Of a stretch of 64,000 nt of DNA, positions 1 through 64,000 are shown in pieces. The position numbers and the translations under genes are program-made. This stretch comes from Sipunculus nudus (lineage: Eukaryota; Annelida; Sipuncula; Golfingiida; Sipunculidae): positions 64,548,019 through 64,612,018 of the forward strand of contig CM049306.1 of NCBI GenBank assembly GCA_026874595.1, written 5' to 3'. The notes beneath the pieces were generated by a model. It saw only the letters and a program-made list of their open reading frames with translations, was not told the origin of the DNA and searched no databases. The stretch's first letter is position 1. The number at the start of each line of letters is the position of its first letter.

Positions 1-402
1 TTCCAGTTTTGTCATGTCAGGTTTGTCAAATATTACAAAATGCCGGAAACTAGATCCGTCTAGCTGTAAAAGTCGCCGAGTTATAAGCATTTCCGTGTAC
101 TCTAGTGTTTTCTCGTTTGACGAGATGGTGCAGGATTTGGCCAGTCTTGTAGATTTGTCATATCAAACTCTCTAAATGTTATGAAATGGCGAAAACTACA
201 TCTGTCTAGCTGTAAAAGTCGCCGAGTTATTAGCATTTCTGTGAAATCTCCTTTTTTATCGTTTGACGAGATATGGTGCGAGATTTGGCCAGTCTTGCAG
301 GTTTGTCATGTCAAACCGTCCAAATGTTAATGAATGCCAAAAACTAGACCTGTCTAGCCGTGAAAGTCGCCGACTTATATGCATTTCTGTGAAATCTCGT
401 TT
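1..402 (+). repeat. 147-bp tandem modules (C core)
   Basis: The marker AGTCGCCGA occurs at 71, 217 and 364, giving a period of 146-147 bp. Each monomer also carries TCTCGTTTGACGAGA, itself a near palindrome, and a CTAGACCTGTCTAGC stretch. The array resumes at 2811 after the inserted A element. Confidence 0.85.
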
Positions 403-2810
403 TTAGCTCAGCTGACTGAAAGTCATCTGAGCTATAGCGATCACTCTTTGTCCGTCGTCCGTCTGTCCGTCCGTCCGTCTGTCCGTCCGTTAACCAGGCA
501 CAAATCGTAACCGCTGGACCTAGAACCTTGTAACTTGGTATTCTGAGAGGTCCATAAAAATCTCCTTGGAAACCAGAAATTAGGTCTCTGTTACCCATAT
601 CCTTCGAGCTATGTGGCCCCAAAGTACCCCCCAGAAAAGTCAAAAATTTCATACAAAAACTTCAATATCTCATTAACTACTTGACTGTTGGTCATGATTT
701 TTGGCATACATATTGATCATGAGATGTCACATCACTTCCTGCAGACTGGTGGCGCCACCTGTATTTTTCGATTTTTTACGAATTTTTTTCTCTATTTTTG
801 AGACCTTTAAAAATGTGAACATCTGTTAACAAGGCACAAATCATAAAGACTGGACCTAGAATCTTCGTTCTTGACACACAGGGAGACCCATGATAAGTCT
901 CCATGGAAACCTGAAATTAGGTCTCTGTTACCCATATTCTTTAAGCTGTATGGGTCCAAAATACCCCCCCCCCCCAGAATAATGGAAAATTTGATACAAA
1001 AACTGCAGTATTTCAATAACTACAACACTGATGGTCATGATTTTCGGCATACATATTGATCATGAGCTGTTCCATCAGTTTCTGCAGACTGGGTGTGCCA
1101 CCTCTATTTTTTTTTCAAATTTTTACGAATTTTTTCTTTTTTTTGAGACCTTTAAAGATGTGGTTATCTGTCAACAGGGTACAAATCGCAACAACTGGAC
1201 CTAGAATCTTCATTCTTGTCATGCGAGGAGGCCCATGAAAGGTGCCTGTGGAAACTTGAAATTAGGTCTCTGTTACCCATATCCTTCAAGCTATAGGACT
1301 CCGAAGTATCCCTCAGAATAATGGACAATTTGATACAAAAACTGAAGTATCTGAACAACTAATGCAGTGATCACCATGATTTTTTGCATGGATATTGACC
1401 ATTAAGTGTTTTTATTAGTTTCTGCAGACTGGTGGAGCCACCTGTATTTTTGTATCCGCCAAAACGAAGTTTTGCGGATAATATGTTTTTGACCGAGTTC
1501 CTCCGCCGCGGCGGTGTTCGTTTCCAGAGAGCTCCTAGGAGACTAATGGAACGATTTTTCCCAAACTTACACCTATTATCGGGTCACATGTGAACTGGTG
1601 CCTAACCAATTTGCATTGACCTCTGACCTTTCCTCTCTATCCAGTGTCCATTTGTGGGTCTGTTTCCACTCATAAACCCTCATATCTCGGGAACCGTTTG
1701 ATCGATCAGGAAATAAAATTGATACAAATGTAGCCCTTGGATTGCTTTATAACATACACAAAAAATGGTGGCGCCACCTGTAACCATGTTTGCACAGTGT
1801 CCATCTGTTCATCTGCCTTGGGTTAAAATCACTCATATCTCTGCAGTGAATTGACTAATTCACCTGAAATTCGTCATGTGTATACATCCAGGATAGCTTT
1901 CTTGATTTTATGACAGGTGGCGCCACCTACGTTCACGTTCACGCTGATGACATCCAAGCTTATATCTCGGGAACCGTTTGACTGATCAGGAAATAAAATT
2001 TATACAAATGTAGCCCTTTGATAGCTCTGTAACATACACAAAAAATGGTGGCGTCACCTGTAACAATGTTTGCACAGCGTCTGTCTGTTAGTCTGCCGTG
2101 GCCTAAAATTACTCATTTCTCTGTAGTGGTTCGACATAACTGCCTAAAATTTTGCAGGTTTATACATCGTGGACAGCTTTCTTGATTTTATGACAGGTGG
2201 CGCCACCTACATTCTAGTTAACGCTGGACACATCCAAGCTCATATCTCAGGAACCATTTGACCGATTGGGCCAAAATTGTGCATGTGTTTAGATCTCACA
2301 TAGGTCTTTATCATACACAAAACTGGAGGGGTTACCTGCAAAGATTTTTGCACAGTGTTTGTCTGTTTTTTCTGCCATGGGCAAAAATCGCTCATATACA
2401 TGTAGTGGTTTGACTTTTCTGCCTAAAATTTTGCAGGTGTATACAACTTGGACAGCTTTCTGGATTTGTGGTAGGTGGCACAACCTACATACACATTTAG
2501 GCTGCAGACATCCATGCTAATATGCAACATACCTCACTCTATTTCCCCTTGCCACTCAATCCATGCCTCACTATCCGATTTTGGCAGATACATGTAGTCA
2601 CTTGTCGGTTACCCGACAACTTTTCTAGTTTTAAAAGTTTACACATTTTTCTCTATTTTTGAGATATATAAATACAGACTAAATCTTGGCCTGTTGGTTA
2701 ATCTGTTTGATGCTTCAGTTGAATGGGTATATACTACCATTCTGATGATAAAATTTCTTTTTGCGAATCTCTTCCCAGTCAGCTGAGCGTCATGACCCAT
2801 GGGTCACTTG
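403..2810 (-). mobile_element. A-family element, reverse, with nested D element
   Basis: Read on the minus strand it starts CAAGTGACCCATGGGTCATG, containing a 14-bp palindrome, then GCTCAGCTGAC. It ends GTCAGCTGAGCTAA, the inverted repeat of that subterminal sequence, preceded by GACGGACGGAC repeats. The core is about 300-335-bp modules with the phrase GGTAACAGAGACC and a GGTGGCGCCACC at 748-759. The paralogous sequence at 5155-5170 is continuous where this element sits (TCTCGTTTTT then CCACATTTGACC), so both boundaries are fixed by an empty site and no long target duplication is seen. Confidence 0.8.
1450..2628 (-). mobile_element. D-family element nested in A
   Basis: On the minus strand it starts CTAGAAAAG, followed by a hairpin near ACCGACAAGTGACTAC and the subterminal TGTATCTGCCAAAA. 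It ends at the hairpin TATCCGC...GCGGATA close to 1452-1479, after GCCGCGGCGG. The core has GGTGGCGCCACC modules at 1767, 1916 and 2196. The related A copy at 15235-15290 (reverse) lacks this block, which marks the insertion point in a T-run of the A module. Confidence 0.75.
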
Positions 2811-3140
2811 TTCCACATTTGACCAGATATAGCGCGAGATTTCGCCAAGTATCGCAGTTTTACTATGTCAAGTTGGCCAAATGTTACCAAATGCCAAAAA
2901 CTAGACCTGAGTAGCTGTAAAAGTCGCCTAGTTATAAGCATTTCCATGATATCTCGTTTTTTTCTCGCTTGACGAGATATGGTGCGAGATTTGGCCTGAT
3001 TTCTTTTCTGGCGTGTCAAGCTGGTCATATGTTATGAAATGCCAAAAACTAGACCTGTGTAGCTGTAAAAGTCGCCGAGTTATAAGCATTTCTGTGAAAT
3101 CTCGTTTTTTCTCGTTTGACGGTAAACCGAGCGAAATTTG
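2811..3140 (+). repeat. 147-bp tandem modules, continued
   Basis: AGTCGCC markers at 2922 and 3070 are 148 bp apart. This is the continuation of the array at 1-402. Together with the following 1.1 kb it is duplicated at about 5165-6330, an offset near 2.35 kb. Confidence 0.8.
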
Positions 3141-3997: not shown

Positions 3998-4253
3998 CGT
4001 GACAAACAAACAAACAAACAAACAGACAAAGAGACAAACAGACATACGCAACTGACGAACATGCTTGCCGAAATCGAAGATTTCCGGCAAGCAACAAACA
4101 GACAGACAGACAAACAGACATACGCAACTGACCAATATGCTTGCGGAAATCGAAGATTTCCGGCAAGCAACAAACAGACAGACAAACAGACATACGCAAC
4201 TGACCAATATGCTTGCCGAAATCTTTGATTCCGGCAAGCAACAAACAAAAAAA
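3998..4253 (+). repeat. C 3'-hairpin minisatellite, 3 copies of about 74 bp
   Basis: The hairpin GCTTGCCG-AAATC...GATTT-CCGGCAAGC occurs at 4063, 4139 and 4211. Copies are separated by ACAAACAGACAGACATACGC-type simple sequence. The last copy is followed by an A-run and then directly by the next C start at 4254. Confidence 0.85.
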
Positions 4254-6436
4254 CTAGATGACCAGAGGTCACGCGCTTGCCGGAAATGGAAATGATACAG
4301 ACAGATAGACAGAGAGTGCATGTAGAAACAGTCATATGAATGAGCAACATTGTGGGGGCAGCAGAAACGGATAATATGTTTATTTATGCATGCTGACCTT
4401 TAACAGCTGCATATCTTTCTAGTGTAAAAGGGACCAAGTTCAAAATTTTTTCATGAAATCCCGTTAATCTCGTTTGACAAGAAGCAGTGAGACGTTTTCA
4501 GGTTTGTCATGTCAAGCTGGCCGAATGATATGAAATGCCGAAAATCAGACCTGTCTAGCTATAAAAGCCGCTGAGTTATAAGCATTTGCATGAAATCTCG
4601 TGTTTTCTCGTTTGACGGGAAATGGTGCGAGCTTTGGCGAGATTTCCAGTTTTGTCATGTCAGGTTTGTCAAATACTACAAAATGCCGGAAACTAGACCT
4701 GTCTAGCTGCAAAAGTCGCCGTGTTATCAGCATTTACGTGAAATCATGTTTTTTTCTTGCTTGACGAGATATAGTACGAGATTTGGCAAGACGAGCAGTT
4801 TTATTATGTCAAGACGGCCAAATGGCGAAAACTAGATCTGTCTAGCTGTAAAAGTCGCCGAGTTATAAACATTTCTGTGTACTCTCGTGTTTTCTCGTTT
4901 GATGAGATATGGTGCAGGATTTGGCCAGTCTTGTAGATTTGTCATATCAAACTCTCTAAATGTTATGAAATGGCGAAAACTACATCTGTCTAGCTGTAAA
5001 AGTCGCCGAGTTATTAGCATTTCTGTGAAATCTCCTTTTTTATCGTTTGACGAGATATGGTGCGAGATTTGGCCAGTCTTGCAGGTTTGTCATGTCAAGC
5101 CGTCCAAATGTTAATGAATGCCAAAAGTCGCCGACTTATATGCATTTCTGTGAAATCTCGTTTTTCCACATTTGACCAGATATAGTGCGAGATTTCGCCA
5201 AGTATCGCAGTTTTACTATGTCAAGTTGGCCAAATGTTACCAAATGCCAAAAACTAGACCTGAGTACCTGTAAAAGTCGCCTAGTTATAAGCATTTCCAT
5301 GATATCTCGTTTTTTTCTCGCTTGACGAGATATGGTGCGAGATTTGGCCTGATTTCTTTTCTGGCGTGTCAAGCTGGTCATATGTTATGAAATGCCGAAA
5401 ACTAGACCTGTGTAGCTGTAAAAGTCGCCGAGTTATAAGCATTTCCGTGAAATCTCGTTTTTTCTCGTTTGACGATAAACCGAGCGAAATTTGATGAGAC
5501 TTGCAATTGAATGACTTAGAACCAAGGGGAAGCAGCCTTATGCAAAAAACTAGACCCTTGAAACATAAATATTAACTGAGATAGAAGCCAAAAACTGCAT
5601 ATTTTCAGATCGTCAAGTTTAACCCACAAATTTGGTAACCATGGTAATGGCAGCACAAAGCTACATGTGCAGAGGAATAAGCCAATGTTCCTAGTTTAAG
5701 ATACAACGATAAAAATTGTGCCATGTTTAAAATTATTTTAGATATTGCAGAAAAATGATATGTTACAGTGTTTCAGGTACCACGCCCCCTGGTGGCTATT
5801 TCCAAAAAATGAAAAACTGATTTCGAGATATTTAAAAAAAACACAAAATATATCAATTTCAAAGCCATTGTTAAAAAAATGCAACCTGTAGGTCATATTT
5901 AATGAAATCTCGAAGACTCTCGTTTGACGAGAAATGGTGCGAGATTTGGCGAGACTTTCAGTTTTATCATGTCAAGCTGCCTATAAGGTACATAATGACC
6001 AAAACCAGACGTCTGTAGCTTAAAAATTGACAAAGTTACAAAAAATGGTCGTGTTATTTCCAATTTCCATGATTTTTGCCCAAAAAATGTAACCATGGTA
6101 ATGGCAAATTTAAGTAAGCTACATGTCAAAAGAAAGGCCAGGTGATGACGAAAAAAATGAGCTATTGCAGAAGTGGATAAGGCTTTTTATGGCAAAGTTA
6201 TAGTGCAAAAACCGTTAACCATACCTGTCATGACCTTGACCCTTGACCTTGGAGCAATGTTGACCAAAAACAATAGGGTTCCAGGGTGTTCGGTTGTCAA
6301 TCAACCCTGTAAGGGTCATGTCGATTGCTGCAAAGTTGTGGCCAGGAGAGTGCAGACAAACACACAAACAAACAGACAAATGGACATATGCAACTGACCA
6401 ACCAACTTGCCGAAATCGAAGATTTCCGGCAAGCAA
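4254..6436 (+). mobile_element. C-family Helitron-like unit 2, complete
   Basis: It starts CTAGATGACCAGAGGTCA, with a TGACC-AGA-GGTCA hairpin, then the subterminal GCTTGCCGGAAAT. It ends with a single hairpin whose last arm is ATTTCCGGCAAGC, followed by AA. Inside are seven 147-bp-type modules (about 4440-5480), a CTCF-like CACGCCCCCTGGTGGC at 5781-5797, TGACCTTGACCCTTGACC near 6230 and ACAAACAGACAAA repeats. No protein is encoded. The next C unit begins with no spacer at 6437, a head-to-tail junction. Confidence 0.8.
4440..5480 (+). repeat. 147-148-bp tandem array
   Basis: Markers (AGTCGCC or a variant) at 4566, 4714, 4853, 5001, 5126, 5275 and 5423 give spacings of 148, 139, 148, 125, 149 and 148 bp. 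The two short spacings are internal deletions. The 4850-5145 part is nearly the same as 60-345. Confidence 0.85.
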
Positions 6437-6539
6437 CTAGATGACCACAGGTCACACGCTTGCCGGAAATGACCTTGAAATTAAAAATGCATGAGCAATG
6501 AAGAAGAGTACGAAAAAAGGCTATAATTTATGTGATACA

Positions 6540-7300
6540 GATTAACAGTTTTCGAGATACAGCCAACATTTTACAGGATAAATTGTTTGACTGCAGCTCC
6601 CTCTGGTAGCCATATTGAGAAAATGAAAAACTCTTTATAGATATTAGTGCCAGGCATATTTCGTATCAGTTTCAAAATGATGTGTGTAAAACTGGGGATT
6701 GTAGATTGCTATATGTAAGATGCATGCACTGGCAAGTAGTTAAACTGAGGACAGCGGACAAACAGACGGCCATACTGACAAAGTGACAAATGATTCAGGC
6801 CAGATGACCCATAGATAACATCCAGAAGACTCAAGGCAAGAATATAAGCTATAATATATGTAATAACGACTAACATTTTTGGAGATATAGCCGAAAGACA
6901 ACATGTTCGAGCGGGGTTGACTGCAGCGCCCCCTAGCGGCCACAGCCAGAAAATGAAATACCTGTTTCTAGATATTAGTCTCAGATATAAGATGTACTAG
7001 TTTCAAAAAGATTCGTTAAAAACTATGGCTTGTACTTTGCCATATGTAACATGCTACACCAACCAGCGGGCGTGATTGTTGACAGCAGACAAACAGACAG
7101 ACACACTGACAAAGTGACACAAGATTGAGACCAGATGACCCAACCAGAATATAGGGAAGACTCAGGACAAGAAAATAAGCTATAATTTATGTAAGTAAGA
7201 TTAATTGTTTTGGAGATATGGTCAAAACAAGATATGTCACTGTGTATTCGCTGCAGCGCCCCCTGGCGGTCAAATTCAAAAAATGGAAAAATAATTTCGA
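6540..7300 (+). repeat. 330-bp modules carrying CTCF-like motif
   Basis: The GC-rich heart of each module recurs at 6591, 6921 and 7251, exactly 330 bp apart. 6921-6942 reads CTGCAGCGCCCCCTAGCGGC and 7251-7272 CTGCAGCGCCCCCTGGCGGT; the first copy is degenerate. Each is followed by AAAATGAAAA and TCGAGATATT, and a GACAGACAGACACACTGACA stretch lies between modules. Confidence 0.85.
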
Positions 7301-7839
7301 GATATTGCTGTTGGATATAAAATATATCAGTTTCATAACAAATATTTCAAATTTGTGGCATCTAGGGTATCATTAATGATATCAGGAAATATCTCGTATG
7401 GCGAGATTTCATGCTAGAATTGGCGAGACTTGGTATTGGATCGTCGAGAACTCTTGACGGGCTACATTATGCAAAAAACCAGACCTCTCTAGCTATAAAA
7501 CTGACAAAGTTACAAAAATTAGCCCTTTTATTTTCGAAAATAATGAGTTTTCCCCAAAAATGTGTAACCATAGAAACAGCAGATTTCAGCAACATATATA
7601 TCAGAAGAAAGGCCTTGGAATGCCGATTAAAATGAGCCATGTTTGAAGTGGCTATGACAAATAGTAATGGAGATATGAAGAAAAGAGCACTTTAGGAACT
7701 TTTGATGACCTTGACCTTGACCTTTGACCTATATTGCCCAAAAACAATAGGCTTCTTGCATTTTTGATTTTACACAAACTGTGAAAGTTTGAAAGCGATG
7801 GGATCAAAATTGCGACCTGTAGAGACTGGACAGACAAAC

Positions 7840-8255
7840 AAACAAACAGACAAACAGACATCTGCGACTGACCAACCAGCTTGCAAAAATCGAAGATTTC
7901 CGGCAAGCAACAAACAGACATCCGCGACTGACCAACCAGCTTGCGAAAATCGAAGATTTCCGGCAAGCAACAAACATATGAACAGATCAACATGCTTGCC
8001 GAATCTTTGATTCCGGCAAGCAACAAACAAACATACGCGGGTGATCAACATGCTTGCCGAATCTTTTATTCCGGCAAGCAACAAACATACGCGGGTGACC
8101 AACATGCTTGCGAAAATCAAAGATTTCTGGCAAGCAACAAACAGACATCCGCGACTGACCAACCTGCTTGCCGAAATCGAAGATTTCCGGCAAGCAACAA
8201 ACATACGGAACTGATCAACATACTTGTCGAAATCTCTGATTCCGGCAAGCAATAA
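7840..8255 (+). repeat. C 3'-hairpin minisatellite, 7 copies of about 57 bp
   Basis: Hairpin starts lie at 7879, 7939, 7994, 8052, 8106, 8166 and 8222, a period of 54-60 bp. Stems of GCTTGC...GCAAGC are kept even where the inner bases change, including paired changes in the loop arms. Linkers are AACAAACAGACATCCGCGAC-like. Long ORFs read through both strands here only because of the repeat. Confidence 0.9.
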
Positions 8256-8636: not shown

Positions 8637-8901
8637 AACAGACAAACAGACATCCGCGACTGACAAACCTGCTTGCCAAAATCGGAGATTTATGGCAAGC
8701 AACAAACAAACAGACATACACGACTGACCAACCAACTTGCCAAAATCGAAGATTTACGGCAAGCAACTCACAGGCATACGCGACTGACCAACCAACTTGC
8801 CGAAATCGAAGATTTCTGGCAAGCAACAAACAGACAGACAGACATCCGCGACTGACCAACCTGCTTGCAGAAATCGAAGATTTCGGCAAGCAACAAACAG
8901 A
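8637..8901 (+). repeat. C 3'-hairpin minisatellite, 4 copies of about 64 bp
   Basis: Hairpin starts at about 8671, 8735, 8795 and 8863 with the same AACAAACAGACATCCGCGAC linkers as the preceding array. The last hairpin abuts the next C start at 8902. Confidence 0.85.
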
Positions 8902-15087: not shown

Positions 15088-16552
15088 CAAGTGACCCATG
15101 GGTCATGACGCTCAGCTGACTGGGAAGAGATTTGCAAAAGGAAATTTTATCATCTGAATGGTAGTATATACCCATTCAACTGAAGCATCAAACAGATTAA
15201 AGAATAAGCCAAGATTGTATCTGAATTTATATATCTCAAAATATGGGAAAAAATGCGTAAACTTTAAAAAAAATACAGGTGGTTCCACCAGTCTGCAGAA
15301 ACTAATAAAAACACTTAATGGTCGACATCCATGCAAAGAATCATAGTGATTTCTGCATTAATTGTTCAGATACTCCAGCTTTTGAATCAAATTTTCCATT
15401 ATTCTGAGGGATACTTCAGAGTCCTATAGCGTGAAGGATATGGGTAACAGAGACCTAATTTCAGATTTCCAAAGACACTCTCACGGGCCTCCTTGCATGA
15501 CAAGAATGAAGATTCTAGGTCCAGTTGTTACAATTTGTGCCATGTTAACAGATGACAGCATCCTTAAAGGTCTCAAAAATAGAGAAAAAAATTTAAAAAA
15601 ATTAAATAAAATATAGGTTGCACCATAAGTCTGAAGAAACTGATGAAACACTCCATAATCAATATGCATGTAAAGAATCATGGTGACCTCTGCATTAGTT
15701 GGTCAGATACTTCAGCTTTTGTATCAAATTGTCCATTATTCTGAGGGATACTTCGGAGTCCTATAGCTTGAAGGATATGGGAAACAGAGAACTAATTTAA
15801 GGTTTCCACAGACACTTTTCATGGGCCTCCTTGCATGACAAGAATGAAGATTCTAGGTCCAGTTGTTACAATTTGTACCATGTTGACACATAACAACATC
15901 CTTAAAGGTCTTAAAAATAGAGAAAAAAAATTGTAAAAATGTGTAACAGATATTGAAGTTTTTGTATGAAATTTTTCACTATTCTGGGGGGTACTTTGGG
16001 GCCCCATAGCTCAAAGGATTTGGGTAACAGAGACCTAATTTCTGGTTTCCATGGAGACTTTTCATAGGTCTCTCACTGTGTCAAAATGAAGATTCTAGGT
16101 CCAGTCTTTACGATATGTGCCCTGTTAACAGTTGTTCACATTTTTAAAGGTCTCAAAAATAGAGAAAAAAATTCGTAAAAAATCTAAAAATACAGGTGGC
16201 GCCACCAATCTGCAGGAACTGATGAAACATCTCATGATAAATATGTATGCCAAAAATCATGACCATCAGTGATGTAGTAAATGAGATATTAAAGTTTTTG
16301 TATGAAAATTTTGACTATTCTGGGGGGTACTTTGGGGCCCAATAGCTCGAAGGATATGGGTAACAGAGACCTAATTTCTGGTTTCCAAGGAGATTTTTCA
16401 TTGACCTCTCAGAATTTAAAGTTACAAGATTCTAAGTCCAGCGGTTACGATTTGTGCCAGGTTAACAGACAGACGGACAGACAAACGGACAGACGGACGA
16501 CGGACAAAGAGTGATCGCTATAGCTCAGCATGACTGAAAGTCAGCTGAGCTA
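15088..16552 (+). mobile_element. A-family element, forward, complete
   Basis: It starts CAAGTGACCCATGGGTCATG, then GCTCAGCTGAC. It ends in the hairpin AGCTCAG...CTGAGCT with GTCAGCTGAGC as last arm, preceded by GACGGACAGACAAACGGAC. Core modules are marked by GGTAACAGAGACC at about 15443, 16023 and 16360 with a variant at 15782: about 335 bp, one copy deleted. GGTGGCGCCACC lies at 16196. It is about 1.47 kb with no coding. A B element starts six bases further on. Confidence 0.85.
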
Positions 16553-16557
16553 TAAAA

Positions 16558-18733
16558 CAAGGCCTACAGGCCTAGTGCGAACCTGTGCATTGGGAAATAC
16601 ACCAGATATAATGCTTCAATGCTGGACCATTACTTCTCATGTATATGAACAATGCAAGTACTAAACATTTTGAATAAGAAAAAATTACACAAACATCACT
16701 GCTGAAATTCTGGCATGGGTGCACACAACACAAAAATGATTGTAGCTGGCACCACCAGTCGTGTATACATATATACATATGCCCAATTTCAGCTGATATA
16801 TCAAATTCCTCTGTAGAAATAAGCAGGCACATACACTGTGCAAAAGTCATTGTAGGTGGCGACACCTGTCTTGTGAACGAGAAAGCCATCAAAGACATAT
16901 AGACAGGTCAAAATATCAGGCCAATACATCAAAATTACCTTGAGTCTGATGCATGGGGCTTACCAGGCTAAGGTGAGAAAGGCAGTTGCCCCGAGTGAGC
17001 TGTGACAAATTTGCTAGCTGGCTCAGGCTACTGCACTAAGTGAACTCATGACCTGCACCTGGCTAGACTGAGTGAACTTTCGACCTGTACCTGGCTGCAC
17101 TCAGTGAACTCTTGACACAGTTGACACAGTTGGTAGTCCACATGCAGCCCTGAGGGGCATGACACCCATGAGGTGATCACATGGTGGCCATGAGGTGTTC
17201 ACATGTCACCCATGAGGTGATCACATGCCTTGTACTTGGCTGCACTGACTGAACTCTTGACACAGTTGACACAGTTGGTAGTCCACATGCAGCCCTGAGG
17301 GGCATGACACCCATGAGGTGATCACATGGTGGCCATGAGGTGTTCACATGTCACCCATGAGGTGATCACATGCCTTGTGCTTGGCTGCACTAACTGAACT
17401 CTTGACCTATATCTGGCTGCACTGACTGAACTCTTGACCTATATCTGGCTGCACTCTTGATCTGTTGCCAAATCTGAAACAGTTGGCAGTTTCTCAACCT
17501 ATTTAAAGATACAAACACAATCTTGGCCTGTTGGTAAATATATTTTACACATACTGAGAGACTTTTTTTTCAAGCTGACATATTCATAAACTTTTTATCA
17601 AAATATCTAAAATAACAAAAGATGCAGTTCTTTCATTGTTAAAGGTCCAATAATTCTGCCAAAAATCATTCAAGTAAAATAATTTTTGTGCAATGTTACA
17701 GAAGTTATAATAATAATTTTGTAGAAGAACAGTTTTGCAGTCCTCAGTTTGAAATAGACATAATAATGGCCATAAGACCAACTTAAGCTTATCTGATATG
17801 ATTGAAAGAGCCTTGTCCTAGGATAATTCTTTTGAAAAATTGAACGATTCAACTTGACAGTTTCATCATAAACATTTTAAGGTGAAAGAGGCTAAAATTA
17901 TTAGGTTTTTGCCCATAAAAAAACAGGTCAATTAATGTAGGTGGCACCACAAAATCTGCAAATTCAAATATGAGTCATGTGACCAACATTTGCACAATAC
18001 TTGGTAATAAATCAAATTGGTGTAAAACCACTAAAATTCATCAAATGCATACCATTTGAACAAACTTGAGAGGGCTTGCCTCTGGGATAATTTTTGTAAA
18101 ATATTGAACAATTTGGCTGGACCATTTACAAGAAGACTTTTTAAGGTTTTTCAGCTTTTTCCCTATAAAATCTAAGTAAATGCAGATAGCAAAAAAATAA
18201 GCTGAATCCCACAACATTTGATATGTGACAGATTATTGCATAAAATCTTGGGATGGTAGCTATTGCTATTCCTGAGAAATTATGGGTTAATGTACAGATG
18301 ACCAATGACCCCCATACAAAATAAGGTCAATGCAGGTGGCGCCACCAATACCTGAATTTCATATATGACTCATGTGACCAACACTGGCATAAAATTTGGT
18401 GATCATAGCTCCGGACATTTCTGAGATTCTAAGTTTACTGTAACTCGGCCAAAATTCACCGAACTTGAACCATTTGAACAATCTCGAGACAGACTGTATA
18501 AAAGATTATTTCTGTGAAACATTGAACAATTTGGCTTGACTGTTTTGGAGGAGAAGATTTTTAAAGGTTTTTTTGCTTTTTCTCTATAAAATCTAAGAAA
18601 ATGCAGAGTTTTCAGATGGCTAATTTTTTGCATTAAATTTCATGATACTAGCTCCAGTTGTTTTCAAAATAGTATGGGTTAACGACGACGACAGACGATG
18701 CCAAACCTTCGCATTAGCTCACAGGTTCACTAA
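16558..18733 (+). mobile_element. B-family element, complete
   Basis: It starts CAAGGCCTACAGGCCT, an AGGCCT-AC-AGGCCT hairpin, then GCGAACCTGTG. It ends CACAGGTTCACTAA, the inverted repeat with one change, preceded by GACGACGACAGACGATG. Internal blocks in order: a GCACCACCAGTC-type region, a TGCACTGACTGAACTC minisatellite, a TGATTTTGCCAAAA-type region and a GGTGGCGCCACC at 18336. It is the same size and order as 60078-62275. Confidence 0.85.
17095..17460 (+). repeat. 145-bp duplication and short minisatellite in B
   Basis: CTTGACACAGTTGACACAGT recurs at 17111 and 17256, 145 bp apart. Within each copy CATGAGGTGATCACATG and CATGAGGTGTTCACATG alternate. The right flank has short units of GGCTGCACTGACTGAACTC with CTTGACCTATATCT. 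Confidence 0.85.
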
Positions 18734-20099
18734 AAATTACTACAGATTCATATTGAATGCAAAATTATAATACAGATACATTTCACTGATGGCAAAATCT
18801 TGAATAAAGTTGAGTATGGATACCAATTATTTATAATCCATGTACAGCCGTCTTTATATACCCACAGAGAGCTGTATACCTGTGATTTTAAACATTGCCT
18901 GGCATGAGGAATATCTAAAATGATAAATCTAATTTTTTAAAAAGCTTTTAAAAAAAACATTCTTGTCAATATTAACCATAGATAACCTGAAATCTATATG
19001 TCTAGAGGCATGATGTAACAGATGCTGATAAACTGGTGCCAGGCTAGATGTATCTGCTTCACACAGCTAACATGTGGTAAAATGACTCAATTCAATCTTT
19101 ATAATTCAGCCAAATTTCATTCTTTTGAACCATAAAAGACAATTATTATCAGAATTATTCAGGGGATTATTCCTGTAAATATTAAACAAATTGGCCTCAG
19201 TAGCGTTAGTCAAAAAACTTTCTGCAGGTTTATAACTCATATGGGAAAATACAGCAAACTGGCTAAGTTCAGCTTCCCGTAACTCAACCAAAAAGCACTG
19301 AACCCAAATCATTTGAACAAACTTGAATTATCAACATCTGAGGATAATTAATGTGTGAGATTTAAGAATTTGGCCCAGTGGTTTTTGAGAAGAAGATCTT
19401 TGTAGCCACTGAGCTAAAAACTGGCTGTTATGGCATATGACTAAATTCAGCTTCCCATAACTTAGCCAAAAGTCACTGAAAAGAGACCATTTAAACAAAC
19501 TTCAGAAAGCACTACCCTAGGATCATTTCTGTGCGATATTAAATATTTTGGCCATATGTTTTAAGAGAAGAAGTTTTTTGTAGCCCTCAGTGTGATACAG
19601 GCACTAATGACCCCATACAAAAAAGGCCGATGCAGGTGGCGCCACCAATACCTCAATTTAAGATATGACATATGTTACCAACATTGGCATAAAATTTGGT
19701 GATGATAGCTCCAGCCGTTTCTGAGATTTAAATCTTAATATACTTTTTTGCACAGTTAACAAAGTTCAACCTCCTTTAACTCGGCCAAAAATCTCCAAAC
19801 TGGAACCGTTTGAACAAACTTGAGAAAGATTGTTCCAGGGATCATATCTGTGAAATATTGAACAATTTGGCTGGACAGTTTCGGAGAAGAAGATTTTTAA
19901 AGCTATTTTAGCTTTTTCCCTATAAAATCTAAGAAAATGCAGTTAGCCAAAAAATAAGCAAAATCTGATAGTTTTTTAGATGACTAATTTTTGGCATAAA
20001 ATTTCGTGATGCTAACTCTTGCCGTTTTCAATATAGTATAGGTTAACGTACAGATGACGGATGATGCCACACCATCGCATAAGCTCACAGGTTCGCTAA
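18734..20099 (+). mobile_element. B-family 3' part
   Basis: It starts inside a B-type internal block (TGAATGCAAAATTATAATAC) also present at 33235 and 56785. It has GGTGGCGCCACC at 19634 and ends CACAGGTTCGCTAA after GTACAGATGACGG. It has no 5' end of its own next to it, so it is either the remainder of the element into which 16558-18733 inserted or a truncated copy. Confidence 0.7.
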
Positions 20100-41590: not shown

Positions 41591-41629
41591 TGGTGTAAGA
41601 CAAGTCATTTATTTAAAATAGATTATTAT

Positions 41630-43955: not shown

Positions 43956-44029
43956 TAAAATGACTGATTTTTTTCAGTTAAACTGTGATTATCCTCATCA
44001 TTCTTTATCAAATATTTCACAAATGATGT

Positions 44030-44176
44030 TTGTGTAATTGGTTCTTGAACATAATCTATAGTACTAGCATTGTTCATATACATGTTACAGATGTACTTGA
44101 AAAGTTATGGTCCAGCATTGAAACATGATACCTGGTTTAAATCTAGCACAGGTTCGCATTAGGCATCTAGGCCTTG
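44030..44176 (-). mobile_element. B-family 5' end fragment, reverse
   Basis: On the minus strand it reads CAAGGCCTAGATGCCTAATG, then GCGAACCTGTGC, followed by the CAATGCTGGACCAT phrase of B. It is cut after about 150 bp. The A/T-run on its outer side may supply the poly(A) signal of the neighbouring gene. Confidence 0.75.
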
Positions 44177-45234: not shown

Positions 45235-45908
45235 CTAGATGTGGTCGGACAATGGTCCTCAGAGGGCCCCGCCTTTCTGCAAGTGCTGGACTAGTTTACA
45301 TGTGGGTGAAAAATTAAGTTAAATTTGAAAAAATATGACAAACAGAAAAAGGGTTTTTATCCATATGCATGAGGGAAAAATCCTACTGGACCAAATGATA
45401 TTAAAGAAGATGTCTGAAATAATGTGTGCAATAGAAAATCAATGAATGTAATCTGTTAGCCATATTTGATTTTAAGCCAGTCTGTAATTCAATAGATCTG
45501 GAGCCCTTATATGTACCAATCAACCCTGTGAATTTGGGAAAGCTGCAGTATGTTGCTGTGGAGTTATCACGCACGAAAGAAAATCAGCGATTGGGCCGTG
45601 GCGGCCATATTGGAATTCCAATAACTCTGTAATTTGAAAGGTCTGGAGCCCTAATAGGTACCAATCAAACCTGTGAATTTGGAAAAGCTGCAGTATGTTT
45701 ATGTTGAGTTACAGCGCGCAAAAGAAAATCAGGGGTTGGGCTGTAGCAGCCATATTAGAATTCCAATAAGTCTGTTATTTCAATCAACCCTGTTAATTTG
45801 GGAAAGCTGCTGTATATTGTTGTTGAGTTATCGCGCTCGAAAGAAAGTGTCACCGACGGAAGGACTGACTGACACGGTAATCACTATAGGGCACCTGCTT
45901 GTCAAGCG
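45235..45908 (+). mobile_element. G-family element, 3' end truncated
   Basis: It starts CTAGATGTGGTCGGACAATG, then GAGGGCCCCGCC. Modules of about 145 bp follow: CTGGAGCCC at 45498 and 45643, with GGGCCGTGGCGGCCATATTG at the heart and CCAATAACTCTGTAATT at the join. GACGGAAGGACTGACTGACA precedes ACTATAGGGCACCTGC, after which D sequence takes over abruptly, so the final hairpin arm is missing. Confidence 0.7.
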
Positions 45909-49339: not shown

Positions 49340-50771
49340 CTAGATGACCAGAGGTCACGTGCTTGCCGGAAATGATGTAATGTTAGTCAGATGAATGAGC
49401 AATATCAAAGTGAAAGAAAATAAGCCATCATTTGTAAAGATTGGACCAATATTAACAAAGTTCTGAAGAATATAAGATTTTGATATGTTTTGGTCACCTT
49501 GACCTTGGACTTATTTGAATAATAAACATAGGCCTTCCAGATATCGTTACGAAAAATAACAAGAGTAAGTTACAAAGCAATTCCTGCAAAACGGTGGCCA
49601 GTAGAATTCTATATGTTAGACGCAAGAACCAGGAAGCAGGCGAAATGAAGAACAACTGAAAAACACACTAACATAGTGACAAACTAACCCAAGATTGAGA
49701 CCAGATGACTTAATTATGTTATGAAAAAACCTCAGAGGAAGATTATAAGCTATAGTTTATGTAATTGAGGTTTATAGTTTTGGAGATATGGGCAAAAAAT
49801 GATATGTTGTGGAAGTTTGGGTGCAATGCCCCCTAGCGGCCATATCTGGAAAATGAAAAATTTGTTTCATTATTTTAGTGTAAGACATAAGATGTAATAG
49901 TTTTAACAGGAATCTTTCAAAACTGTGGCCTGTAGAATGTTATATGTGAGACACAAGAAAGAGCAAGCAGGTGATTTGAGGACAACTGACAATCAGACAG
50001 ACATCCTGACAAAGGGACACAAGATTGAGACCAGATGACCAAACGAGTTCATGAAGAAAGACTTAGAGGAAAAAAATAAACTATAGTTTTTGTAATTGAG
50101 GCTTATAATTTTGGAGATATTGCCAAAACATGATATGTTGTAGAGGTTTGCACCCAGTGCCCCCTTGCGGCCGAATTCAAAAAATGAAAAAATTATTTCG
50201 AGATAATAGTGTAGGACTTATGAAAAGTCAGTTTCAAAAAGATTCCTGCAAAACTGTGGCCTCCAGGGCAAGATTACTGAAATCTCGAAATATCTCGTTT
50301 GACGAGATATTATACGAGATATTGTGAGACTCTTAATAGAATCTTGTAGTACTAGGTGAATGGTACCTGAAGCAAAAAACTAGACCTCTGTAGCTTTAAA
50401 ACTGACAAATTTAGAAAAATATCAGCACTTTTCCCCATGGTTACTGCAAATTGAGTCAGCTACACACCAGAAGACAGGCCTTGGAATGACGATTAAAATG
50501 AGCTACTGTTGAAGTAGATACGACCAATATTAACACAGATATGAACAAAAAACCGTTTTGTATACTTTTGATGACCTTGACCTTGACATTTGACCTATAA
50601 TGCCAAAAAACAATAGGCTTCCAGGACTTTGCTTGTCTACCAGCTGTGTAAGTTTGAAAGCAATTGCTGAAAAATTGTGGCCTGTAGAGAGTCCACAGAC
50701 AGACAGACAAACAAACAGACATCCATGACTGACCAACCTGCTTGCAGAAATCGAAGATATCCGGCAAGCAA
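49340..50771 (+). mobile_element. C-family solo element, complete (1.43 kb)
   Basis: It starts CTAGATGACCAGAGGTCACG with GCTTGCCGGAAAT and ends in a single hairpin, last arm ATATCCGGCAAGC plus AA. CTCF-like motifs lie at 49822-49844 and 50155-50173, a TCTCGTTTGACGAGA module near 50292 and TGACCTTGACCTTGACATT near 50573. Flanks CAATTAAA and CAAACATCACTGCTG are contiguous in B copies at 16690, 60210 and 63477, so the insertion is exact with no target duplication. This copy is the best reference for the family. Confidence 0.88.
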
Positions 50772-53813: not shown

Positions 53814-55708
53814 CAAGGGACCCATCGGTCACGGCGCTCAGCTGAAGTTTGAAATTTTTGCAAATGCAAAATATGCAAAATATTCTACTGTAATGTTTTT
53901 CATTTATATAAGCATATGAGAAGCTAAGAGGAAAGGGGCCCTCCTACTTGGTTATAGTAAAGTTCTTAATATATGATTGCAAACTAATACTCTGACAAGA
54001 CTGTCATGAAGAAAAACAGTGACAAATTTGAGATACTGTGATGCATATGAAAAATTTACAGATGGACAGCCAAATGGACAGAATGGACTAATACCTAAAT
54101 TTCACTTTCAAGGGAATAATGCATTTAAGCTTATATATAAGCCTATTTTTTTAGCATATCCACTTTTTCCATTAATAGTTTTTATCTGATTCATTTTTTT
54201 TTTATTTACAAGTTTTATAAATTTGTAATAAAAAAACTGAAAATATAAGTTAAAATATTAGAATTCAAAGTTGCAATTATTATATATCCAGAGTGTAGCT
54301 CATATTGGGTCATATTATGCATACACATATATTTTATTATTTTTAAATCACTAATGTTTAAACTGAATTTAAAAGAGAATAGTGCCACAACATGGCATCT
54401 AGAAGATTTTTCCTTGAATCACTTTTAAAAAGTTTTGCACATTGGAGTTTTCAGTACATGCTTAATTTTATTCACTGAAATGAAATAAAAGATTCAGTAA
54501 ATTTGATAAAATAAAAACATCTTTTCAAATAAAGTATACACACATGTTGGTTGAATGAGGGACAAACAATATCATTGTGCTAATTACTATCTCAGCTATA
54601 ATTTTTTATTACTGGAATTAATAGTCAATTTCACACCTGGTGAAGTTTTTACTCTTCTGAAGTAAGGAATTACTTATCTGATGAACATCCACACTTTCAT
54701 AGCAATACACCACTTTGTGGACACAATTAAATGTGCACTTTAATCATTGTAACCCTGGTGCTACAATACAAAATCTAAAATGTAGCATAGCCAAGAATAA
54801 AATAAAATACAGAAAATTATAACATTCACATAGTTAATGCACCATCTGGAAGGGGGGGGGGGAGTACAGGGCAGAGGGGAAGCCTGCTAGTAGTGGCCAA
54901 GCTGAGCCAAGGCAAGCTGCCTGGGGTCTGTTACAAAATGCAAGTGAAGGCTGTACTACCAGGTGGACTGGATGTAAACAACACTTGACATGGTGTATGG
55001 AAACTTGAATAAAACCTACTCTTTTCAATCAATTCCTTTGAAATTTCGGATTTTAAAAGATTAAATTCTTATCTATATATGTTGTGAAAATTAAATCAAC
55101 AGTGCTTACAGGAAAAAAACATGCTATTGCCAAAGTTGGACAAAATTTAAAGTATTGATTTTTTATTTATGCTAATAACTTGACAAATTTGTAAAATTCA
55201 GATCTAATTTTGGGTAAAAAATTGAACCTTGATTAAATAAAGTTATATTCCTGAAAAAAAAGTCTCCAGCTTCAGCAATTCTCATGTTAGGTGAGTAAAT
55301 ATATTTCCTGATTTTTTCAAAATCGCATTATATTTGGCCCATAACTCCCAAATAATACCCAATACTGACCTAATTTTTGGTATGTTCATAGAAAATGTAT
55401 GGAAGAATATGAATACTAAATATGATGAAAAACAGATTAGTGGTTTTGATATTAGGCAGCCTTGGAGTGTAACAATGGTTTTTTACGGAAAAACAGAGGT
55501 TTTTCCTTAATATCTTGAAGCAACAAAGTCCTAATGACCCAATTTTCGGTATTGTAGGAGATTTTGGGGACATCTAATTGTATGGAAAATTTTGGATTGG
55601 TAGGTCGTACGGTTTTAAAACGTGCCCTGTTAACGGCCGGCCGGCCGCAGGGACAATGGACAAAAGACCACTACTATAGCTCAGATGACTTATAGTCAGC
55701 TGAGCTAA
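53814..55708 (+). mobile_element. A2-family element, complete, shorter
   Basis: It starts CAAGGGACCCATCGGTCACG with GCTCAGCTG and ends GTCAGCTGAGCTAA after GGCCGGCCGGCCGCAGG. Flanks (GATGACAAATCTTTTGGAAAA and ATTGGTGATGCTAGC) rejoin to B sequence at 56585-56620. The 54840-54960 part is GC-richer but matches A2 internal sequence near 27090, so it is not an exon. Confidence 0.82.
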
Positions 55709-59106: not shown

Positions 59107-59150
<44 letters not shown>

Positions 59151-60077: not shown

Positions 60078-62275
60078 CAAGGCCTACAGGCCTAATGCGA
60101 ACCTGTGCATTGGGAAATACACCAGGTATAATGCTTCAATGCTGGACCATAACTTCTCATGTATATGAACAATGCAAGCACTAAACATTTTGAATAAGAA
60201 ACAATTACACAAACATCACTGCTGAAATTCTGGCATAGGTGCACACAACACAAAAATGATTGTAGCTGGCACCACCAGTCTTGTATACAACAAAGCTATG
60301 AGAGATATATACATATTATACATATGCCTGATTTCAGACTGATATATCAAACCCCTCCTGAAAATAAGCAGGGAAACACACTGTGCAAGAATTATGGTAA
60401 GTGGCACCACCAGTCTTGTATAGGACAAAGCTATTCAATATGTATATATATGCCCAATTTCAGGCAGATATTTCAAATTCCTCTGTAGAAATAAGCAGGT
60501 ACATACACTGTGCAAAAGTCATTGTAGGTGGCGACACCTGTCTTGTGAACGAGAAAGCCATCTAAGACACATAGACAGGTAAAAAAATCAGGCCAATACA
60601 TCAAAATTACCTTGAGTCTGATGCATGGGGCTGTCCAGGCTTAGGTGAGAAAGGCAGTTGTCCCCGAGTGAACTGTGACAAATTTTGCTGGCTCAGGCTA
60701 CTGCAATGAGTGAACTCATGACCTGTTGCATAATCTGACACAGCTGGCAGTCTGCCAAAGCTATAAATAGATCAAGGCTGAACTTTGGTGCCACATCTGA
60801 TGGCAAGTCTGCTAACACTATAAATAGAATGCAGCTACTGCACTGACTGAACTCCTGACCCATACCTGGCTGCACTGAGTGAACTCTTGATCTGTTGCCA
60901 AATCTGAAACAGTTGGCAGTTTCTCAATCTATTTAAAAATACAGACACAATCTTGGAGTGTTGGTGAATCTGTTTGCATTTTTTTTCCAGCTGACATATT
61001 CATAAACTTTTTATCAAAATATCTAGAATAATTAAAGATGCAGTTCTTTCACTGTTAAAGGTCCAATGATTCTGCCAAAAATCATTCAAGTAAACTTGAA
61101 CAAAGGCCACCAAAGAATAATTTTTGTGCAATGTTACAGAAGTTATAATTGAAACAATAATTTTGTAGAAGAACAGTTTTGCAGTCCTCAGTTTGAAATA
61201 GACATAATAATGGCCATAAGACCAAAAAAAGCTTTTCTGATATGGTTGAAATAACCATGTCCAAGGATAATTCTTTTGAAAAATCGAACGATTCAACTTG
61301 ACAGTTTCATCATAAACATTTTAAGCTGAAAGAGGCTAAAATTATGAGGTTTTTGCCCATAAAAAAACGGTCAATAAAGGTTGCACCATAAAATCTGCAA
61401 CTTCAAATATGAGTCATGTGACCAACATTTGCACAATACTTGGTAATGCTAGCTTCTGTCATTTCTGAGATTACTATGTCAGTATGCTTACTTGGCCAAA
61501 TGACTGTTCAAATTCATGTAACTCCACTAAAATTCATCAAATGCAAACCATTTGAACAAACCTGAGAGGGCTTGTCTCTGGGATCATTTCTTTTAAATAT
61601 TGAACAATTTGGCTGGACCGTTTACCAGAAGAAGACTTTTAAAGGTTATTCAGCTTTTTCCCTATAAAATCTAAGTAAACGCAGATAGCAAAAAAATAAG
61701 CTGAATCCCACAAGATTTGATATGTGACAGATTATTGCATAAATCTGGGGATGGTAGCACTGCCATTCCTGAGAAATTATGGGTTTATGTACAGATGATC
61801 AATGACCCCCGTACAAAAAAGGTCAACCAAAAATGTGACCAACACTGGCATAAAATTTGGTGATGATAGCTCCGGCCATTTCTGAGACAGTCATTTTAGT
61901 ATGCTTTTTTGGACAGATGACTAAGTTCAACTTCCTGTAACTCGGCCAAAAATCACCGAACTTAAACCATTCAAACAAACTTGAGAAAGATTTTTCCAGG
62001 AATCATTTCTGTGAAATATTGGAAAATTTGGCTGAACAGTTTATGAGAAGAAGATTTTTAAAGCTTTTTCAGCTCTTTCACAATAAATCTAAGAAAATGC
62101 TGTTAGCCAAAAAATAAGCAAAATCCGATAGAGTTTTTTAGATGACTTATTTTTTGCATAAAATTTCATGATGCTTACTCTTGCCGTTTTCAAGATAGTA
62201 TGGGTCAACGTACAGACGCCAGACAACTGACACCTGACAACCCCACACCATCGCATAAGCTCACAGGTTCTCTAA
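60078..62275 (+). mobile_element. B-family element, complete (2.2 kb)
   Basis: It starts CAAGGCCTACAGGCCTAATG with GCGAACCTGTG and ends CACAGGTTCTCTAA after CGTACAGACGCCAGACAAC. No nested element, so it serves as the reference for B: GCACCACC modules, TATAAATAGA, minisatellite, CATTTGAACAAAC blocks, 3' end. It lacks the D and C insertions seen in its relatives, and gives their empty sites (60210 for C, 60250 for D). Confidence 0.88.
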
Positions 62276-63336
62276 AAATCTAAAATAATATCATTTGGAG
62301 ATAAAGTCTAGGAGGAAAAGGTAATATAGGCCATGGCTGGTTGACATGATTGGCTTACACTGATAAGTAAGAAGTTGTTTCAAATAATATTTTGTGACCA
62401 AACCATGCATTTCCTAATGTTAAAATTGAAGCATGTGAGCAGTTTGTGACCATAAGATGAATATTAATACCATGATCATTGGTTGGCTTTTTGATAAACT
62501 GTTAACATTTCAGTGGTTTACACATTTGTTAAATTGGATATATATATATATATATATCATTAAATATGTTTTTTTTTCTATTTTATAAAATGTATATAGT
62601 TGAAATATAACTAATATCCCTAGTCCACAGATGGAAGGACTTGGTTGTGGTGGTGGGGGGGGGGGGGGGATGGTTAGTGGAATGATGGGATTAAAGTTTA
62701 ACATATGCAATATTATTCAACTGAATATACAAGTTGCTTTCAAATTTCAGATTATCCAAAAACCATACACATAAAGCATATGAAAGTATAGGAAAATTTC
62801 ATAAATAATATATATTTAAGGATAACGGAGAGATGATGGATAGAAGAGCTGATCACTCCTGAGGAAAGAATGTTTCAATCAGATCTTAATTTTTTCTAAT
62901 CCAATAATTTTTTTCCAATAAATTTTTACACATTTTTCAATTAAAAACTAATGTCCCAGTACACAGGTGCAAAGGAACCAATGGCAGCTGTGTGTGTGTG
63001 TGGGGTTGGGGGTGGGTTATGGTTGGATTAACAACACTTCTGCATAAACATACAGGGAAAACAAAGCCTGATCTCCAATTCTGCTGAGGCAGGAAAATAA
63101 TGAACAAATGATTGTATTAGATCCTCGTTTTATTATCAAATCATTTTTTTCGTTTTAAGTTTATATTTTTATACATTTTCAATATAATCTATATATCTAT
63201 ATAAAAGTTTATTCATAATTCTAAATTACATCATCATAAATCTCAATCAGATAACACCACATCATGTATACAAATGTATATTAATTTTTACAACAAACAT
63301 ACATCTTTTAAATTTGCAAAACAATAAATATGTAAA
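62276..63336. other. unique AT-rich DNA with microsatellites
   Basis: A (TA)n tract lies at 62539-62560, a G-run at 62655-62669 and a (TG)n/G-rich tract at 62990-63020. AATTTTTACACATTTTTCAA-like phrases occur. Nothing matches the A to G families and no exon was recognised. Confidence 0.5.
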
Positions 63337-64000
63337 CATGGCCTACAGGCCTAATGCGAACCTGTGCAATGAGATTACACCAGGTATAATGCTTCAATGC
63401 TGGACCATTACTTTTCAAGAACATTTGTAACATGAATATGAACAATGCAAGTACTAAACACTTAGAACAAGAAACAATTAAATAAACATCACTGCTGCAT
63501 TTCTTGCATGGGTGCACACAACACAAAAACTAGAATATGGGTAGTCAACAAGGGACTACGTGTATCCGCCAAAATCAGAGTGGGAAAGGTGAAGTGAGGC
63601 ATGGATTGAGTGGCAAGGGGAAATAGAGTGAGGTGTGTTACATAATAGCCTGGATGTCTGCAGCCTAAATGTGTATGTAGGTTGCGCCACCTTCCACAAA
63701 ATCCAGAAAGCTGTCCAAGATGTATAAACATGCAAAATTTTAGGCAGATAAGTCAAATCACTACCGAGATATGAGTGATTTTAGCCCACAGCAGACAAAC
63801 AGACAGATGCTGTGCAAAAAGGGTGGCAGGTGGTGCCACCAATTTTGTGTATGATTAAGAGATATGTGAGATCTGAACACTTGCAAAATTTCAGGTGGAT
63901 ATGTCAAACCAGTCCTGATATATAAGCCTGAATGTCTGCAGCGTATACATTAATATAGGTGGCGCCACCTGCCACAATAATCAAGAAAGCTATCAAAGAT
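63337..64000 (+). mobile_element. B-family 5' end with nested D, runs off the window
   Basis: CATGGCCTACAGGCCTAATG with GCGAACCTGTG starts B. At 63530 CTAGAATATGGGTAGTC starts D, with a perfect GTAGTC...GACTAC hairpin and TGTATCCGCCAAAA, the cleanest D 5' end in the window. D modules follow (GGTGGCGCCACC at 63958). Confidence 0.82.

What the first reader, a model, noticed from the sequence alone, without database searches (positions are those of the whole stretch)
1..64000. Seven non-autonomous families share one end architecture with 11-14-bp subterminal inverted repeats
Seen: 5' start CTAGA (C, D, E, F, G) or CAAG (A, A2, B), then a short hairpin, then an inverted-repeat arm that returns at the 3' end before AA. 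Pairs: A GCTCAGCTGAC/GTCAGCTGAGC; B GCGAACCTGTG/CACAGGTTCGC; C GCTTGCCGGAAAT/ATTTCCGGCAAGC; D TGTATCCGCCAAAA/TTTTGGCGGATACA; F GTATCCCCAGACA/TGTCTGGGGATAC. GACGGAC- or GGCGGC-type simple repeats sit before the 3' end. Family sequences differ although the plan is the same. Established: Helentron-derived HINEs have subterminal inverted repeats, terminal hairpins and core tandem repeats. Inference: these are HINE-like families, each with its own end specificity.
Basis: partly seen in the sequence, partly recalled or inferred. Interest (0 to 1): 0.85.

Follow-up and report, generated by a model that had tools for sequence, protein, structure and literature searches.

The report
Nested rolling-circle transposons with matched ends

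Summary
Five families (A, B, C, D, F) each have an 11-14-bp arm at one end that is the exact complement of an arm at the other end; arms match only within a family. By published definition its "CTAGA/CAAG start + hairpin + arm" is the true 3' end (subTIR, palindrome, CTAG or CTTG), and its "3' end before AA" is the true 5' end (TT or TTA, subTIR, usually an inverted repeat, microsatellite). "Seven families" is too many: for E and G no matching 5' arm was found, and A2 is an A subfamily. Paralogous empty sites at seven insertions confirm the ends: 17 of 18 comparisons fit a gain of exactly two Ts and no other duplication. All 26 mapped 3' ends precede a T. This is the HINE (non-autonomous Helentron) plan. 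Additions: a decayed Pif1-helicase relic on the + strand, probably of a Helentron, followed in the same direction by a B-type 3' end; tandem arrays of C-family 5' ends; and GGTGGCGCCACC in cores of several families. Verdict: new families of a known kind.

The parts
403..2810 (+). Family A element, the only A copy mapped on the + strand, inserted in C-type sequence; carries D nested
   Evidence: 5' TTTTTA|GCTCAGCTGAC, 3' GTCAGCTGAGC + palindrome + CTTG|TT; empty site 5124-5253, 97.7%
1450..2628 (+). Family D element nested in A
   Evidence: arms 1451 and 2579 (1 mismatch); 3' CTAG|TTTT; empty site 15359-15184, 86%
4017..4241 (-). C-family array of true 5' ends (3 units)
4254..6436 (-). Family C element (C1)
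   Evidence: 3' end CTAG at 4254; 5' arm ends 6434, TT 6435-6436 abuts the next C 3' end
6437..8252 (-). Family C element (C2) with an array of seven 5'-end units (7850-8252)
8637..8893 (-). C-family array of 5' ends (four units)
15088..16553 (-). Family A element at the 3' side of a mixed-end composite
   Evidence: 3' end CTTG|TTTATAAAGCC continues into C-type host
16558..18733 (-). Family B element between A and a B-type 5' part
18734..20099 (-). 5' part of a longer B-type element; with 15088-18733 it forms one insert in a C-type host
   Evidence: host paralogs 5715-5900 and 3373-3546, about 83% across the joined flanks; the T-run junction was not clean
20757..23377 (-). Family F element with 289-bp core repeats, next to the coding relic
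   Evidence: arms 20788 and 23363; joined flanks gave no empty site
23378..26022 (+). Probable Helentron relic: Rep-like and Pif1 helicase pieces, broken frames
   Evidence: PF05970 PIF1 E=6.2e-5 (24900-25169), Pif1_2B E=0.0024 (25198-26028), both below curated cut-off; weak PDB Pif1-type matches; Rep-like piece without a Pfam hit
26023..28648 (-). Family A (A2-type) element interrupting the relic
28649..29076 (+). Relic continued; a frame recalls an endonuclease (recalled resemblance)
   Evidence: no Pfam support
29077..40101 (-). Family A element interrupting the relic, with B (and within it A and D-type sequence) nested
   Evidence: 3' end 29077, 5' arm ends 40098
29859..39095 (-). Family B element nested in A
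   Evidence: empty sites 58464-58636 (89%), 39695-39868, 57745-57917, 15561-15730
34297..38933 (-). Family A element nested in B
   Evidence: empty sites 56470-56643 (88%), 19862-20036, 62025-62198
40102..44176 (+). Relic continued; reaches a B-type 3' end (subTIR 44147-44157, CTTG|TT at 44176)
   Evidence: GDFN-type frame 40272-40394 (recalled); 44024-44179 is 84% identical to the minus-strand B end at 63334-63491
42938..43960 (-). Family E (3' CTAG; no matching 5' arm found; high end approximate), 180-bp core repeats
45235..45890 (-). Family G fragment (3' end only; high end approximate)
49340..50771 (-). Family C element in B-type host
   Evidence: empty site 63393-63570, 91%
53814..55708 (-). 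A-type unit (both ends A) in B-type host
   Evidence: empty sites 38942-39050 (79%) and 56579-56648 (82%)
60078..62275 (-). Family B element, both ends present
63530..64000 (-). Family D element, 3' end and core; runs off the window
   Evidence: D arm at 63561; with the 5' ends at 47557 and 32388 fits the empty B sites 16690-16790 and 60210-60310
30524..32071 (.). Example of core repeats that carry GGTGGCGCCACC twice per 277-bp D unit

Best explanation
The window is a nest of non-autonomous rolling-circle elements of the Helentron kind (HINEs). Each family is framed 5'-TT(A)-subTIR(-inverted repeat)-microsatellite ... core tandem repeats ... subTIR'-palindrome-CTAG/CTTG-3'. There are two end classes: A and B have TTA and CTTG (one B end reads CATG); C, D and F have TT and CTAG. 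Inferred mechanism: a Helentron Rep/helicase protein supplied in trans nicks at the 5' end beside the subTIR hairpin, Pif1-type helicase activity peels off a single strand, the 3' subTIR and palindrome mark the stop, and the strand is joined into a T-run without duplicating the target. Family-matched subTIRs would let the 3' copy pair with the 5' copy and open the 5' hairpin (the model proposed for Helitron2 in PMC3627910). Shown here: the anatomy, the arm matching, the boundaries and the target. Inferred: nicking, single-strand transfer and pairing. Family B is probably (about 60%) the satellite of the decayed + strand Helentron relic, because the only + strand B 3' end follows that relic.
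For: Arms match only within a family: 11-14 nt against 3-6 nt. 5' hairpins of 9 or more pairs in 14 of 18 A, C, D and F ends, against 1% of random stretches. Microsatellite just inside the 5' end and core tandem repeats with periods of about 145-342 bp. Seven insertions with paralogous empty sites: best identity 86-98% for five, 79-82% for the A-type unit, not computed for D in B; 17 of 18 comparisons give +2 T and no other duplication. 26 of 26 listed 3' ends are followed by T and 24 by TT. Of 16 stop-to-stop frames of 120 aa or more the two longest (250 and 292 aa) are in the relic; the rest are 179 aa or less. Pif1 pieces on the + strand. Shared B 3' region of 158 bp at 84%. Published features from passages of PMC4067079, passages and section 7 of PMC7492417 and passages of PMC3627910.
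Against: Coding support is weak: Pfam hits fall below the curated cut-offs, and neither the Rep piece nor the endonuclease pieces hit a fitting Pfam family. B lacks a 5' hairpin (0 of 7). The 3' palindromes are weak copy by copy: perfect stems of 5 or more in 15 of 24 A, B, C, D and F ends, and with one defect allowed most are within what random stretches give. The C 5' hairpin keeps 94.7% of cells paired, but covariation is no better than shuffles (120 of 500 reach it). A two-base TT duplication cannot be told from element-borne TT. No genome was held, so copy number and genome-wide consensus could not be tested. The B-Helentron link crosses about 3.5 kb of unassigned DNA that holds E, and the relic's 5' end is not in the window.
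Confidence: 0.86

Rival explanations
1. The elements move by cut-and-paste and make a 2-bp TT target-site duplication (MITE-like), not by a rolling circle.
For: Clean sites gain exactly two Ts, and 24 of 26 listed 3' ends are followed by TT.
Against: The ends are asymmetric: the 5' subTIR starts 2-3 nt from the end, the 3' one lies about 19-36 nt inside it; no terminal inverted repeats are seen in the end sequences; CTAG/CTTG at one end only; helicase relic nearby. Two 3' ends are followed by TC, not TT, but their 5' partners are not known. PMC4067079 (passage) treats the Ts as part of the element.
Confidence: 0.07
2. They are canonical Helitrons (Helitron1) with decayed ends.
For: CTAG-3' in C, D and F fits CTRR; helicase relic.
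Against: 5' is TT(A), not TC; A and B end in CTTG; insertion is not confined to A^T; passages of PMC3627910 give Helitron1 one hairpin and no paired subterminal repeats.
Confidence: 0.03
3. The repeats are ordinary satellites or segmental duplications, and the arm matches are incidental.
For: 75% of the window has a paralog elsewhere in the window at E<=1e-8; long tandem arrays.
Against: Homology stops at defined ends, and the host continues uninterrupted in paralogs at seven sites; arms match within family only.
Confidence: 0.02

Closest known systems
Cg_HINE elements of the Pacific oyster (PMC7492417; passages and section 7 read)
   Same: 11-12-bp subTIRs, complementary inverted repeat, GTCC/GTCY microsatellite on the left flank, central satellite-like repeats, 3' subTIR then palindrome, TT preference, no TSD, different sequence per family
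   Different: Arms 11-14 bp here; B lacks the inverted repeat; that paper could not relate its HINEs to an autonomous Helentron, whereas here a B-type 3' end follows a helicase relic. Sequences could not be compared (supplements not available).
HINE-Mo families and DINE-1 / Helentrons (PMC4067079; passages read)
   Same: 12-15-bp subTIRs, 3' palindrome, T-rich target, Ts belonging to the element, no TSD
   Different: The T number at the ends is described as variable; here it is two in 17 of 18 comparisons.
Helitron2 (passages of PMC3627910 and PMC4067079 read)
   Same: Short asymmetric inverted repeats, hairpins at both ends, T-rich target
   Different: PMC4067079 gives Helitron2 no endonuclease domain; here an endonuclease-like frame (recalled label) follows the helicase pieces, and tandem cores fill the elements.
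CvA, CvE, CvG and Pearl of bivalves (only as mentioned in PMC7492417 and PMC11136912 passages)
   Same: Different sequences, shared plan, tandem cores
   Different: Not compared by sequence.

Membership tests
HINE / non-autonomous Helentron | Family-specific subterminal inverted repeats of about 11-15 bp | tested here: met
   A, B, C, D, F; not shown for E and G
HINE / non-autonomous Helentron | Inverted repeat complementary to the 5' subTIR (5' hairpin) | tested here: inconclusive
   9 or more pairs in 8 of 9 A, 3 of 5 C, 2 of 3 D, 1 of 1 F, 0 of 7 B ends; background 1%. C covariation not above shuffles
HINE / non-autonomous Helentron | Palindrome between the 3' subTIR and the 3' end | tested here: inconclusive
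   Perfect stems of 5-7 bp in 15 of 24 A, B, C, D, F ends; with one defect allowed, random stretches of the same length reach the observed stem in 2-87%
HINE / non-autonomous Helentron | Microsatellite and central tandem repeats | tested here: met
   microsatellite weak in B and D
HINE / non-autonomous Helentron | Insertion at T/TT without target duplication | tested here: met
   7 sites, 17 of 18 comparisons +2 T only; 26 of 26 3' ends before T. A TT duplication is not excluded
HINE / non-autonomous Helentron | Autonomous partner with Rep/helicase and endonuclease sharing its ends | tested here: inconclusive
   + strand relic with Pif1 pieces followed by a B-type 3' end; Rep and endonuclease labels are recalled, with no Pfam hit; no B-type 5' end on the + strand in the window
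Canonical Helitron (Helitron1) | 5' TC, 3' CTRR, insertion between A and T | tested here: not met
   5' TT(A); CTTG in A and B; mixed left neighbours
MITE / classic TIR transposon | Terminal inverted repeats with a fixed target duplication | tested here: not met
   Repeats are subterminal and asymmetric; only TT is gained

The most novel reading that the evidence does not exclude
The satellite-like cores are retained because each unit carries a binding site for a host chromatin factor of the CTCF type. The C core carries matches to the CTCF consensus in one orientation, roughly once per 330-bp unit, and cores of A, B and D (and F once) carry the palindrome GGTGGCGCCACC, which shares the AGGTGGCGC half. 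Tandem growth of the core would then build arrays of factor-bound sites that rolling-circle transposition scatters through the genome.
Probability: 0.1. Interest if true: 0.75.

Novelty: new member of a known kind. Interest (0 to 1): 0.35.

Why it matters
The element plan is already published, so the finding itself is mostly confirmation. Three additions could matter. First, boundaries at single-base resolution (two Ts gained per insertion) bear on the variable T count that PMC4067079 left open. Second, a candidate Helentron partner for one HINE family bears on the unresolved partner question in PMC7492417. Third, a shared G/C-rich palindrome in core repeats of several families suggests a testable reason why these transposons keep satellite-like cores.

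Tried and rejected
A 30-nt A 5' pattern in viral contigs and a 30-nt A core pattern in genome contigs gave 0 hits. Rfam at gathering scores gave no hit. Covariation in the C 5' hairpin is not above shuffles. The 3' palindromes were controlled only at the end and turned out weak; I lowered the main odds from 0.88 to 0.86 for this and raised the TT-duplication rival from 0.06 to 0.07. A stricter test with perfect stems only had shown 6 or more pairs in 4 of 9 A, 2 of 5 C, 3 of 3 D, 1 of 1 F and 0 of 7 B 5' ends (background 7%). Local homogenisation of the C 5'-end arrays was not found: within-copy identity 0.797 (30 pairs) against 0.793 between copies (90 pairs), permutation p 0.37; one of the 16 units (8895) was 4 nt out of register in that call and was corrected to 8891. 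Strand bias remained after allowing for T-run supply (binomial p 2e-4 to 1.5e-3), but the insertions are nested and not independent, so I do not claim it. Two 3' coordinates were off by 1-2 nt (B should be 49195, D should be 63530) and one (B should be 16558); the T counts do not change. Conservation of core motifs: the two D palindromes rank in the top 3-5% of windows (33 units), the C CTCF-like site only in the top 21% (12 units); the A and B alignments did not hold the whole motif, so they were not tested. At most two mismatches the CTCF consensus has 17 hits against 4.1 expected. A search for papers with AGGTGGCGC, CTCF and Drosophila found one paper, where the string is in an unrelated table. 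Of a search on CTCF, molluscs and repeats and one on Helitron, bivalve and CTCF I saw only the listings. An exon-like frame at 44408-44587 gave no PDB or Pfam hit. Empty-site candidates at C-C joins, at B 16572-28645 and at B 49195-56737 were ambiguous and are not counted; the B/A composite at 15088-20099 was not clean.
Full report
The window has no genome held for it and is 63% A+T. 75% of it has a paralog elsewhere in the window.

Check of the observation. I mapped occurrences with up to two mismatches on both strands. For families A, B, C, D and F, 40 nt from a 5' end and 30 nt from a 3' end, from different copies except in F, share complementary runs of 13, 11, 13, 14 and 13 nt; all 20 cross-family comparisons gave 3-6 nt. 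E and G end in CTAG behind a possible palindrome but have no convincing matching arm. A2 copies have A-type ends with two changes in the 3' arm.

Polarity. In published HINEs the 5' subTIR is followed by its inverted repeat and a microsatellite, and the 3' subTIR by a palindrome near the 3' end (passages of PMC4067079; section 7 of PMC7492417). Read this way there are two end classes: TTA ... CTTG (A, B) and TT ... CTAG (C, D, F).

Hairpins. Allowing one mismatch or bulge, the 5' subTIR pairs with its inverted repeat over 9 or more pairs in 14 of 18 A, C, D and F ends and in none of 7 B ends; 1% of random stretches reach 9. The 3' palindromes are weaker: F has 9 pairs (2% of random stretches), the best A 7 (3%), the best B 6 (6-7%), one D 8 (6%), but C and several A, B and D copies are within chance one by one. 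They lie in the same place in each family, which is why I keep them in the plan.

Boundaries. Joining flanks and searching the window found uninterrupted paralogs for A in C (405-2810), A in B (34297-38930), B in A (29859-39092), C in B (49340-50769), D in A (1451-2628) and an A-type unit in B (53814-55705); D in B was tested with flanks from two copies. I then asked how many Ts before the subTIR must be counted to the element for the joined site to fit the paralog best. Across these seven insertions (eight rows) 17 of 18 comparisons gave two and one gave four, in a long T-run. No other duplication was seen. All 26 listed 3' ends are followed by T and 24 by TT. This fits HINEs, for which PMC4067079 reports T-rich targets, Ts that belong to the element and no TSD. 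A two-base TT duplication would look the same and is kept as a rival.

Coding relic. On the + strand, stop-free pieces between 23378 and 26028 match PIF1 (E 6.2e-5) and the Pif1 2B domain (E 0.0024), both below Pfam's cut-offs, and weakly match Pif1-type helicases in the PDB (E 0.013-0.02). Neighbouring frames recall a Helentron Rep piece (QTHSHSSYCKKKGSCRFSFP) and, after two insertions, an endonuclease (FTETYLTDE in 28875-29009; VLGDFNDNL in 40272-40394). These two labels come from memory and no Pfam family supports them. The relic borders F on its left and is cut by two A elements; E lies in its downstream part. Further down on the same strand lies the only + strand B-type 3' end of six (44147-44176); 44024-44179 is 84% identical to a minus-strand B copy over 158 nt. 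I take B to be the likely satellite of this Helentron (about 60%). PMC7492417 states that its HINEs could not be related to autonomous elements, and my search on this point listed three papers, of which I did not read PMC7992393.

Mixed ends. One insert in C-type host sequence (15088-20099) begins with a B 5' end and ends with an A 3' end. Replication from B that stopped at a nested A terminator would give this; so would a deletion between the two CTTG-TT ends. The T-run junction is not clean. If the first is right, the arms are not strictly required to match.

Arrays of 5' ends. C copies carry one to seven tandem units spaced 53-76 nt, each holding the 5' hairpin sequence, 13 of 16 preceded by TTTGTT. 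Units are as different within a copy as between copies (0.797 against 0.793, p 0.37), so this is not recent local expansion. Repeated loss of nested copies down to a 5' stub, or aborted insertions, would fit; I cannot choose.

Core motif. GGTGGCGCCACC occurs 35 times exactly and in none of 50 Markov shuffles. Its 10-mer GGTGGCGCCA has the most distinct sequence contexts (9; next is 8, an A/T-rich word) of all non-simple 10-mers seen six or more times, by a rough ungapped test of flanks. It lies in A, B and D cores and once in F, outside the 289-bp array. I did not test whether these cores are distant relatives. The C core instead carries CCASYAGRKGGCRS (consensus as quoted in PMC6746451): seven hits with at most one mismatch against 0.2 expected, all on the minus strand like the elements, in C1, C2 or beside the C 3' ends at 8902 and 12007. 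In D units the palindrome is among the best-conserved windows (top 3-5%); the C site is not (top 21%). The palindrome matches the CTCF consensus only in its right half. The 12-mer was found in one unrelated paper of the library. This is a lead, not a result.

Verdict. New families of a known kind, in a dense nest, with a probable partner relic.

Noticed in passing
7850-8252, 4017-4241, 8637-8893: Tandem arrays (7, 3 and 4 units, spaced 53-76 nt) of C-family true 5' ends, each with its hairpin sequence; units as diverged within as between copies.
   Followed up: partly
cores of A, B, D, F; e.g. 748, 19635, 23028, 31079: GGTGGCGCCACC, 35 exact copies in the window and none in 50 shuffles, in core repeats of several families.
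   Followed up: partly
5795, 6939, 7269, 9894, 11117, 11451, 12383 (-): Matches (0-1 mismatch) to the CTCF consensus CCASYAGRKGGCRS in or beside C elements, all on the element's strand.
   Followed up: partly
15088-20099: Insert with a B-type 5' end and an A-type 3' end in C-type host DNA: possible chimeric transposition or deletion.
   Followed up: partly
whole window: 23 of 25 listed 5' ends and 23 of 26 listed 3' ends are on the minus strand, more than T-run supply predicts, but insertions are not independent.
   Followed up: partly
35180-37182: Insert with CAGGGTTCGTAC terminal inverted repeats and TTCTAC on both sides, like a cut-and-paste DNA transposon, inside an A element.
   Followed up: no
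20952-22705: F core repeats carry TGACCTTGACCTTTGACCT; TGACCTTTGACCT occurs 8 times in F and once elsewhere. It recalls a nuclear-receptor direct repeat (recalled).
   Followed up: no
44408-44587 (-): Exon-like frame (VAVSEELNGVSGKYFAECKIA...) that recalls a retinol-dehydrogenase-type C-terminus (recalled); no PDB or Pfam hit.
   Followed up: partly
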